Shown here: positions 5,163 to 8,200 of the stretch, in pieces
Numbering within the stretch: position 1 is the stretch's first letter
Layout: every line of letters begins with the position of its first letter
Assembly (NCBI GenBank): GCA_015069385.1
Contig: SVIS01000008.1
Span: 1 to 59,230 of the forward strand
Length of the DNA: 59,230 nucleotides
Reading direction: 5' to 3'
Origin: Clostridiales bacterium
Lineage (GTDB): Bacteria > Bacillota > Clostridia > Christensenellales > UBA1242
Position numbers and translations under genes: made by a program
Notes under the pieces: generated by a model
Told to the model about the DNA's origin: nothing
Databases searched by the model: none
The model's input: only the letters and a program-made list of their open reading frames with translations

Positions 5163-7985
5163 TTAACCTGCATAATTAAATGTAATTGTTGCATTGGTTA
5201 GGTTCGTATTGGTTAAACCAATTGTAATTGCATTCCATTGCACTTCGGTACCAGTAAAATATACATTGGTTAAACTAGTACAATTATGAAATGCTTGTGC
5301 GCCAATATTTGTAACAGTACTTGGAATTATTATGCTAGTCAAGTTACTACATGAAACAAAGGCTGAAAATCCTATACTTGTAACGCCAGATGGAATGGTT
5401 ATGCTAGTTAACCCACTACAGCCATTGAAAGCATTTTCCCCAATTGCTGAAATATTGTTAGGTATTGTTGTGTTTTTGCAGCCTGCCACTAAAGTATTTG
5501 TTGCTGTTTCTATTACTGCATTACAGTTATTTCTACTATCATATACTACATTACCTGATTCTACAGTTATATTAGTCAACTTAGAATAACTCAAAGCACC
5601 TTCACTAATCCATTTTACACTAGCCGGAATAGTTAGGCTGGTTAATGACAAACATGAAATAAAAATGGAATTACCAATACATGTAACACTATTTGGTATT
5701 GTTACGCTCGTTAAATTACCACACTGCCCAAATGCTTGATCATATATAATTTTACAACTATCAGCAATAGTAAAACTAGCAACATCTGTACTTACTACAT
5801 CCATTAAAATTATATATTTACCTGTTATACTTTTTAAATATTTTCCATTATTATAACTAACTGTAGATAATACATCACAGTTCAAGAATACGGAATTACC
5901 CAACATTGTAAGAGTGTCTGGCAACTCTATATCAGTTAAAGATGTACAACCACTAAATGCACCATTTCCAATAGAAGTTACTCCGTTTGGTATTGTTATT
6001 TCAGTTAAAGATGTACAATCACTAAATGCAAATTTACCAATGCTTATAACACTACTTGGTAAAGTTACATTTATTAACGAAGAACACCAAGCAAAAGTAT
6101 ATTCTTCAATAGAGGTTATGCCATCTAAAATAGTTATACTTGTTAAACTACTACAATTAGCAAAAGCCCTATTAGATAAACTTGTTGCATTTGTAACTGC
6201 CACTGTTGTTAGCGTTGAAGGAACATATGTTGAATTTGAACTAGAAGAACTTCCACCCCAAAATTTACTTAAATAACCATCTATAAATGGAGTTGTTAAT
6301 GATTGTAAGTTTGTACAACCATATAATGCGCTACCACCAATTGTTGTCACGGTTTCAGGAATAACCAAACTAGTAATTGCGGTATTGTTATAAAAAGCAC
6401 GCAACTTAACCGAGGTAACTGTATATTCAAAACCATCGCTTGAAGTTACGGTTGATGGAATTACAATATCGCCTGTTGTTGCCGTTGTGCTTACTTGTGA
6501 AACTGTGGCTGTTGAGCCTGAATATTCGTAGAGTAAATTACCCATAGTATCACTTGCAACTTTTGGTATAAAGCATTTATATTCCACACCATTAAAGGTT
6601 ATATTTTCTTGGGTTGTATTTTCATACAAGAATGCTCCTACTGTAAAACCATTTGTAAATAATGAAGCCTTTACATACACATTTGTAGCATGTTGAACTA
6701 AACATCCCATTGAAGTAGCAGCCTCAAGCCCACTAGCAACAACAGCGCTATCTATATATACTGTTTTTAAGGCAGTACAATTAAAAGCAGAGTTTTCTAT
6801 GCTAGTTACATTACTTGGAATTGTTATGCTTTTTAAGCCAGAACCGCTAAAAACGCCGTTGTCAATGTTTTCTAAACTTTCTGGAAGTGTAATTTGTGTT
6901 AAATTAGTACTATAATCGTAATTGTAATCACCAAGTTGTGTCATACCATTTGGTAAATTTACTTCGCTCAAATTTTCACAAGAATTAAAAATACATCCAG
7001 AAGTCATATCAGTTAATGCCGATGCTATGGTAACTTTAGTTAAATTAGCACAATTAGCAAAAGCACATTCCCCAATACTTTTTACACTGATTGGAATATA
7101 TATTTGTGTTAAGTTTGGGCAACCAATACCATCGTCTGCACCAAAAGAATAACAGCCAATATATGTTATGCTATTTGGAAGGGTCAAACTTGTTAAACTA
7201 GGACAACCCTCATAAGTGTCTGGTGAATCAAAAAATCCACCATCATCTGCTATTGATGTAACAACATAGTCTGTTGTGCCATCGGTTATTACTGCTGGTA
7301 TAACAACATTGGTTGGTTCGTTTCTATAAAAAGCAACCTCGGCTGTTTCTGAATCAGCATCTAGCGTATATTTAATATCTTGATAATAATAAGCATCTTC
7401 ATTTGCATCATACTCAAGAGTTTTTGGCTTTATGTCCTTTAAAAAAATGTTTAAATTATATTTTGTTCCATCAGGAACACTCATTTCATTATTAGCAACT
7501 TTAAAGGTAAGTGTAAAATTTACTTTTTCATCTTTTGCTATAATATAGTCATTATTTTCGCTAGGAATGGCATATGCATTATATTTAGTTACAGAAGAAT
7601 CTGAATTAGTAAATGTTAATGAATAGTCCATTTCTATATATTGAATATCATTAGATGCTGTATTTTGAATGTCAAACGAAAAAGTTATGTCATTTCCGTT
7701 AGCATCAAATTCTAATGGCAATGCCAACCAATCTGCAAATTTTGAACTTATCATTTCTTGTGTTTCATCTGCTTCAATTACATATGAACTCTCAAATGTA
7801 TGATTCACTGTTGAGCCCGACAAAGTAACATTTGTAATGGTTGCGCTAACACCTGTTGTTTTAAAGCCTATAGTGCCTGTTCCTGTTAAAGTAACATACT
7901 TTATTGCGTACACGCTTATTGCTATTGCACATACACAAAGACATATTGTTACTGCATTTAATATCCACTTAAACTTATTTTTCAT
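5163..7985 (-). CDS. BspA-like (LRR_5) surface protein with TasA/camelysin-like N-terminal module
   Basis: 940 aa; MKNKFKWILNAVTICLCVCAIAISVYAIKYVTLTGTGTIGFKTTG N-terminus, then many repeats of the type LTSITIPSGVTSIGFSAFVSCSNLTSI. Confidence 0.92.
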   Translation of the reverse strand: MKNKFKWILNAVTICLCVCAIAISVYAIKYVTLTGTGTIGFKTTGVSATITNVTLSGSTVNHTFESSYVIEADETQEMISSKFADWLALPLEFDANGNDITFSFDIQNTASNDIQYIEMDYSLTFTNSDSSVTKYNAYAIPSENNDYIIAKDEKVNFTLTFKVANNEMSVPDGTKYNLNIFLKDIKPKTLEYDANEDAYYYQDIKYTLDADSETAEVAFYRNEPTNVVIPAVITDGTTDYVVTSIADDGGFFDSPDTYEGCPSLTSLTLPNSITYIGCYSFGADDGIGCPNLTQIYIPISVKSIGECAFANCANLTKVTIASALTDMTSGCIFNSCENLSEVNLPNGMTQLGDYNYDYSTNLTQITLPESLENIDNGVFSGSGLKSITIPSNVTSIENSAFNCTALKTVYIDSAVVASGLEAATSMGCLVQHATNVYVKASLFTNGFTVGAFLYENTTQENITFNGVEYKCFIPKVASDTMGNLLYEYSGSTATVSQVSTTATTGDIVIPSTVTSSDGFEYTVTSVKLRAFYNNTAITSLVIPETVTTIGGSALYGCTNLQSLTTPFIDGYLSKFWGGSSSSSNSTYVPSTLTTVAVTNATSLSNRAFANCSSLTSITILDGITSIEEYTFAWCSSLINVTLPSSVISIGKFAFSDCTSLTEITIPNGVTSIGNGAFSGCTSLTDIELPDTLTMLGNSVFLNCDVLSTVSYNNGKYLKSITGKYIILMDVVSTDVASFTIADSCKIIYDQAFGQCGNLTSVTIPNSVTCIGNSIFISCLSLTSLTIPASVKWISEGALSYSKLTNITVESGNVVYDSRNNCNAVIETATNTLVAGCKNTTIPNNISAIGENAFNGCSGLTSITIPSGVTSIGFSAFVSCSNLTSIIIPSTVTNIGAQAFHNCTSLTNVYFTGTEVQWNAITIGLTNTNLTNATITFNYAG

Positions 7986-8013
7986 ATTATCTCCTTTTAA
8001 GAAATATATTTAT

Positions 8014-8041
8014 ATATTACCCCCCCCTGAACAATTGTCAA
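8014..8041 (-). promoter_or_regulatory. sigma70-type promoter with poly-G tract in the spacer (TTGACA-attgttca-G8-TAATAT)
   Basis: Reverse complement: -35 TTGACA (8036-8041), 16-nt spacer (8020-8035) with G8 (8020-8027), -10 TAATAT (8014-8019), upstream of the LRR gene. Confidence 0.8.
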
Positions 8042-8200
8042 CCAAAATTAAGTGGACTTTTAAATTTTTTTTGAAAGAATTTTATCTTAACTTAACTGAT
8101 ATTTTTTAAAAATTTTCAAGCAAATATTTTTTTAATATTATTTGTCAACAGTTTTAAAAACGTGTACAATAATTTTATATAACATAACAAAAGGGGAACT

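What the first reader, a model, noticed from the sequence alone, without database searches (positions are those of the whole stretch)
7985..8045. Poly-G tract embedded between -35 and -10 of a BspA-like LRR surface-protein gene: candidate phase-variable promoter
The only recognisable promoter upstream of the 940-aa LRR protein reads (minus strand) TTGACA-attgttca-GGGGGGGG-TAATAT, so half of the 16-bp spacer is a G8 homopolymer. In an otherwise very AT-rich genome this is conspicuous. Established precedent: slippage of a spacer homopolymer changes -35/-10 spacing and expression (e.g. porA and opc in Neisseria). One added G would give the optimal 17 bp and one lost G 15 bp. I infer ON/OFF or graded switching of a surface antigen.
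Basis: partly seen in the sequence, partly recalled or inferred. Interest (0 to 1): 0.9.

Follow-up and report, generated by a model that had tools for sequence, protein, structure and literature searches.

The report
Poly-G promoter family for surface proteins
The run of eight Gs inside one surface-protein promoter is one of about forty matching poly-G promoters in this uncultured Clostridia genome, probably letting the cell turn a large set of surface proteins up and down by small DNA slips, as Neisseria and the syphilis spirochaete do, although switching itself has not been observed.

Summary
The window has three such promoters and the genome about 42, nearly all driving one paralogous family (conserved N-terminus; DUF6273 or LRR C-terminus). 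35 of 37 strict sites have exactly 16 bp, one below the 17 bp of the organism's ordinary promoters and of tract-less paralogs. Congeners use unrelated 7-mers before the tract yet keep it; in other genera near-identical promoters differ only in G number, the trace of slippage. The architecture is concentrated in this family (36 of 150 relatives, 8 of 294 class genomes). Unexpectedly, the genome also has three diversity-generating retroelements, one targeting the C-terminus of a gene with its own poly-G tract. Phase variation is the best explanation, but within-species length variation and expression were not testable; near-invariance in this genus and intact MutS/MutL count against fast switching. 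Verdict: real, larger than claimed, mechanism inferred. New variant of a known kind.

The parts
8036..8041 (-). -35 element TTGACA of the LRR gene promoter
8020..8027 (-). G8 homopolymer in the spacer (spacer 8020-8035, 16 bp)
8014..8019 (-). -10 element TAATAT
7991..7997 (-). ribosome-binding site AAAGGAG
   Evidence: read
5163..7985 (-). 940-aa surface-protein gene: family N-terminus plus BspA-type LRR_5 repeats
412..439 (-). second poly-G promoter, TTGACA-ATTGGCT-G9-TAGAAT (16-bp spacer)
3..380 (-). paralogous surface-protein gene, 5' part only (window/contig edge)
59030..59057 (+). third poly-G promoter, TTGACA-ATCGGCT-G9-TAGAAT (16-bp spacer)
59090..59230 (+). paralogous surface-protein gene, 5' part only (window/contig edge)
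8142..8170 (+). ordinary divergent promoter of the neighbouring gene, TTGTCA-17-TACAAT, no tract (comparison)

Best explanation
The G8 tract is the spacer homopolymer of one member of a genome-wide family of about 42 poly-G promoters that head a large paralogous repertoire of exported surface proteins. Shown: each promoter is TTGACA, about 7 bases, G8-G10, then TANNNT, almost always set at 16 bp, one base short of the spacing that ordinary promoters of this organism use. Inferred: 16 bp is a low or intermediate output state; slipped-strand gain of one G gives 17 bp and strong expression, and loss gives 15 bp and near silence, so each gene is tuned independently and heritably and the population shows a changing mixture of surface proteins. 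Some genes in the repertoire are also rewritten at their C-terminus by diversity-generating retroelements, so expression switching and sequence variation would act on one family.
For: Three of three G tracts in the window and 43 of 52 in the genome are in this setting. Spacer 16 bp at 35 of 37 strict sites against 3 of 35 ordinary promoters, Fisher p = 1.7e-14; tract-less paralogs 17, 17, 17, 17, 17 and 18 bp. The gene at C31:5792, an unrelated lipoprotein with different flanks, has the same core, so the core is not only carried along by duplication. Congeners G001 and G003 have quite different 7-mers but keep G9. Slippage in relatives: G016 carries one identical left flank with spacers 14, 15, 16 and 17; neighbouring G085 copies identical on both sides differ as G12/G13; G062 has G14-G19. 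Downstream genes across families are often secreted proteins or lipoproteins. Precedents: porA 11G/10G/9G is high / about 2-fold lower / 13-fold lower (PMC3639595); T. pallidum tp0126 is optimal at 17 nt, and tprL varies 7-11 G while most molecules hold 9 G (PMC7864442).
Against: In this genus the tract hardly varies: 62 of 65 strict sites are at 16 bp, and only 10 of 149 near-identical pairs in G000 differ in tract length. MutS and MutL are intact. No strain-level, read-level or expression evidence was available. If all promoters sit at 16 bp in the consensus genome, then either all are low or all are on; the sequence alone does not say which.
Confidence: 0.66

Rival explanations
1. The G9 tract is a fixed regulatory element: a regulon-defining spacer bound by, or mechanically required by, a dedicated activator or sigma factor, with the 16-bp spacing held constant so that all family genes respond together.
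For: 62 of 65 strict sites in three species are exactly 16 bp; the window copy compensates G8 with an 8-base left part to stay at 16. Tract-less paralogs have ordinary promoters, one beside a palindromic operator-like repeat. Mismatch repair is intact.
Against: Tract length varies freely in other genera of the family (spacers 14-22), including between otherwise identical promoters. The 7-mer beside the tract is not conserved between species. A fixed element does not need an uninterrupted homopolymer.
Confidence: 0.22
2. The tract is a by-product: the promoter and 5' end were copied together by recent gene duplication and gene conversion, and poly-G has no function of its own.
For: The core and N-terminal coding sequence are nearly identical between paralogs within a species, and many contigs end inside these genes.
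Against: The tract recurs in other species and families with unrelated flanks and unrelated downstream genes, and a copy with unrelated flanks and gene exists in this genome (C31:5792). A neutral G9 in a 28% G+C genome should erode.
Confidence: 0.08
3. Assembly artefact: true lengths vary but the assembler or binning collapsed them to G9, or the tracts are sequencing noise.
For: Many contigs break at these loci, so local consensus is fragile. Two contig-end joins overlap by 126-127 bases.
Against: That overlap suggests k = 127, which would span the tract plus unique upstream sequence. Complete interior loci show the same length, and three species agree. Collapsing would hide variability, not create the tract.
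Confidence: 0.04

Closest known systems
Neisseria meningitidis porA poly-G promoter
   Same: G homopolymer between -35 and -10 of a sigma-70 promoter of a surface protein; one-base steps change spacing.
   Different: porA is a single gene in a proteobacterium with proven length-dependent expression; here there are about 42 promoters of one repertoire in an uncultured Clostridia family, with no expression data.
Treponema pallidum poly-G promoters (tp0126, tprE/G/J, tprL)
   Same: Poly-G tracts in promoters of several surface proteins; tp0126 has the tract in the spacer with an optimum at 17 nt; most tprL molecules hold 9 G while the tract varies.
   Different: The T. pallidum tracts differ in placement from gene to gene; here almost every family member has the same spacer tract and the same 16-bp spacing.
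Mycoplasma gallisepticum vlhA (GAA)n family
   Same: Large paralogous surface-protein family, each gene with its own repeat tract in a conserved promoter; a specific repeat number is the active state.
   Different: The vlhA repeat is trinucleotide and lies about 40 nt upstream of the start site, not in the spacer; activity was tied to exactly 12 repeats.
Diversity-generating retroelements targeting DUF6273 proteins
   Same: RT with YxDD and GNQ(S/T)SQ motifs, bAvd-like protein, TR/VR pairs with changes at TR adenines, VR in the C-terminal DUF6273 domain.
   Different: Concerns the protein ends of some family members, not the promoter; pairing with a poly-G promoter was seen here for the C3:1504 gene and not found in the papers searched.

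Membership tests
porA-type spacer-homopolymer phase-variable promoter | Homopolymer lies between -35 and -10 of a sigma-70-type promoter | tested here: met
   Window 8041-8014 and 36 further strict sites
porA-type spacer-homopolymer phase-variable promoter | Modal spacing lies near, and one slip from, the optimal spacing of the organism | tested here: met
   16 bp against 17 bp for ordinary promoters
porA-type spacer-homopolymer phase-variable promoter | Tract length varies between cells or strains of one species | tested here: inconclusive
   No second strain or reads available; length differs between near-identical paralogous promoters in relatives and rarely in this genome
porA-type spacer-homopolymer phase-variable promoter | Tract length sets expression level | not testable with these tools
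   Needs reporter fusions or RNA-seq
vlhA-type repertoire switching | Large paralogous surface family, each gene with its own repeat-bearing promoter | tested here: met
   49 N-terminal family matches, about 42 poly-G promoters
vlhA-type repertoire switching | Repeat tract lies upstream of the promoter, about 40 nt from the start site | tested here: not met
   The tract is inside the spacer (PMC6258824)
vlhA-type repertoire switching | One or a few genes at the active repeat number | tested here: inconclusive
   One strict site at 17 bp in G000, one in G003, none in G001; whether 17 is the active state is unknown
BspA-type LRR protein | LRR_5 repeats | tested here: met
   PF13306, E = 2.4e-114, six stretches
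Diversity-generating retroelement (same genome, outside the window) | RT, bAvd and TR/VR pair with adenine-specific changes | tested here: met
   18 of 18 and 11 of 11 mismatches at TR A; 19 of 25 for the VR of the C3:1504 gene; bAvd matches are below Pfam's curated cut-off

The most novel reading that the evidence does not exclude
An uncultured Clostridia family runs a two-layer surface-variation system: a repertoire of tens of surface proteins, each behind its own slippable poly-G promoter parked one base below the optimum so that only rare +1 variants are strongly expressed, combined with retroelement-driven rewriting of the lectin-like C-termini of some members.
Probability: 0.35. Interest if true: 0.85.

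Novelty: new variant of a known kind. Interest (0 to 1): 0.66.

Why it matters
Spacer-homopolymer switching is known mainly from a few genes of Gram-negative pathogens and T. pallidum. Here it appears to be the standard promoter of a whole surface repertoire in a small-genome Clostridia family, and it is found across many genera. It predicts that much cell-to-cell surface diversity in these bacteria is set by counting Gs, which can be read directly from existing metagenomes. The co-occurrence with retroelements that rewrite the same protein family would join two variation mechanisms in one repertoire.

Tried and rejected
Unique switch: rejected, about 42 sites. Chance tract: rejected (and reversed-pattern controls). 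Named relatives by exact core: a scan of GTDB genomes gave only two unrelated matches (Riflebacteria, Cyanobacteria), treated as chance. Viral contigs: none with the exact core; seven with a looser pattern, not pursued. Loss of mismatch repair as the cause of slippage: rejected for this genome, MutS and MutL present. Poly-C spacers: they exist, one in this genome with a 16-bp spacer, but are rare. Literature: no paper found describing poly-G promoter families in Clostridia. The organism could not be named beyond a protein hit labelled Clostridia bacterium.

Full report
Observation. On the minus strand the window reads TTGACA (8041-8036), ATTGTTCA, GGGGGGGG (8027-8020), TAATAT (8019-8014), then AAAGGAG (7997-7991) and ATG at 7985. 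The gene 5163-7985 encodes 940 aa with BspA-type LRR_5 repeats. The promoter scan finds this as the only minus-strand sigma-70-like site in 7900-8260; the divergent neighbour has an ordinary 17-bp promoter with no tract.

It is not alone. All three G tracts of 7 or more in the window are at the same position of the same kind of promoter, upstream of genes with the same N-terminus. Across the 1.21-Mb genome (31 contigs; the window is contig C6) the strict pattern TTGACA-n-G6+-TA occurs 37 times, with none for the reversed pattern. Of 52 tracts of 7 or more G, 42 lie after a TTGACA or TTGATA -35, and one more is cut by a contig end. The core is TTGACAATYGGCT-G9-TAGAATACAAATATATC. Of these 42 tracts 36 are G9, four G10, two G8.

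What the promoters drive. The genome has 49 matches to the shared N-terminus. Of 18 full-length members including the window gene, eight match DUF6273 and six LRR_5 at the C-terminus. The N-terminus looks like an export signal or membrane anchor (inference). An unrelated lipoprotein gene (C31:5792) has the same -35-to-tract core with different flanks, so the core has a life of its own.

Spacing. 35 of 37 strict sites are at 16 bp, one at 15 and one at 17. Ordinary TTGACA/TATAAT promoters peak at 17 bp: 20 of 35 in G000 and 21 of 31 in G001. The difference is strong (Fisher p = 1.7e-14; paralogs are not independent, so the p-value is indicative). Tract-less members of the same protein family for which a promoter could be recognised use 17 bp (five) or 18 bp (one); others had no clear promoter, so this is a small, after-the-fact sample. 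One more tract-bearing member in G001 has TTGACT and a 15-bp spacer.

Relatives. Of 150 relatives, 36 have the pattern, against two chance matches for the reversed pattern; a sample of 294 genomes of the class gives only eight, one of them this genome (a slightly stricter pattern). Congeners G001 (10 of 10) and G003 (17 of 18) are also at 16 bp although the 7 bases before the tract are quite different. In other genera length varies: G016 has the same left flank with spacers 14, 15, 16 and 17 plus interrupted tracts; G085 has neighbouring copies identical on both sides with G12 and G13; G062 has G14-G19. In G000 only 10 of 149 near-identical pairs differ. Thus slippage is visible in the wider family, while in the window's genus the length is held or slips slowly. 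MutS and MutL are intact here; the variable G108 lacks a MutS match.

Mechanism. Spacer changes of one base are known to grade expression: porA 11G, 10G and 9G give high, about 2-fold lower and 13-fold lower surface protein (PMC3639595); T. pallidum tp0126 is best at 17 nt, and tprL tracts vary from 7 to 11 G with most at 9 G (PMC7864442). The last case shows that a dominant length does not exclude switching. By analogy 16 bp would be a reduced state and 17 bp a strong one. This direction is inferred, not shown. The vlhA family of M. gallisepticum is the closest repertoire-level parallel but has its repeat upstream of the promoter (PMC6258824).

A second layer. The genome has three reverse transcriptases of retroelement type with YxDD and GNQ(S/T)SQ motifs. 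Two have bAvd-like neighbours by Pfam, below the curated cut-off. Template and variable repeats differ at template adenines: 18 of 18, 11 of 11, and 19 of 25. The third variable repeat is the C-terminus of the gene at C3:1504, a family member that has its own poly-G tract (G9 followed by CGGTATACT). In that subtype the likely -10 TATACT lies 19-20 bp from the -35.

Limits. One genome per species was available, so within-species variation could not be measured. Many contigs end in these genes, so some loci are incomplete. No named organism was obtained; one hit is labelled Clostridia bacterium. The conclusion is a well-supported architecture and an inferred function.

Noticed in passing
G000:C15:32786-33385, C28:2668-3267, C20:78429-79043 (L240-L242): Three diversity-generating retroelements in the same genome; variable repeats lie in DUF6273 or WLR-type surface proteins, including the poly-G-headed C3:1504 gene.
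   Followed up: partly
G000:C20:32941 (L066): A G9 tract inside a coding region (an N-terminal piece resembling a PHP-type phosphoesterase, by eye) separates two halves that lie in different frames: a candidate coding-type slippage locus, or a pseudogene.
   Followed up: partly
G000:C25:12662-12689 (L212): Poly-C tract in a promoter spacer, TTGACA-TCA-C9-GTGC-TATAAT, also 16 bp; similar poly-C spacers in G027, G049, G052, G108, G109.
   Followed up: partly
G016 loci L113, L114, L118, L120, L121, L123: Right after the tract the sequence forms an inverted repeat that includes the -10, with stems of different sequence that still pair (for example TAAAATGACCTTGC...GCAAGGTCATTTTA).
   Followed up: no
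G000:C8:37545, C16:15562, C26:10717: Three tract-bearing genes share a long leader with a conserved block that looks like a second promoter between tract and start codon.
   Followed up: no
G000:C3:1504, C24:460, C25:18054: A promoter subtype with CGGTATACT after the tract (G9, G10, G10), giving 19-20 bp to TATACT.
   Followed up: partly
window 1-380 and 59090-59230: Both ends of the window (contig C6) fall inside family genes; many other contigs of this assembly also end in them, marking the family as the main assembly-breaking repeat.
   Followed up: yes
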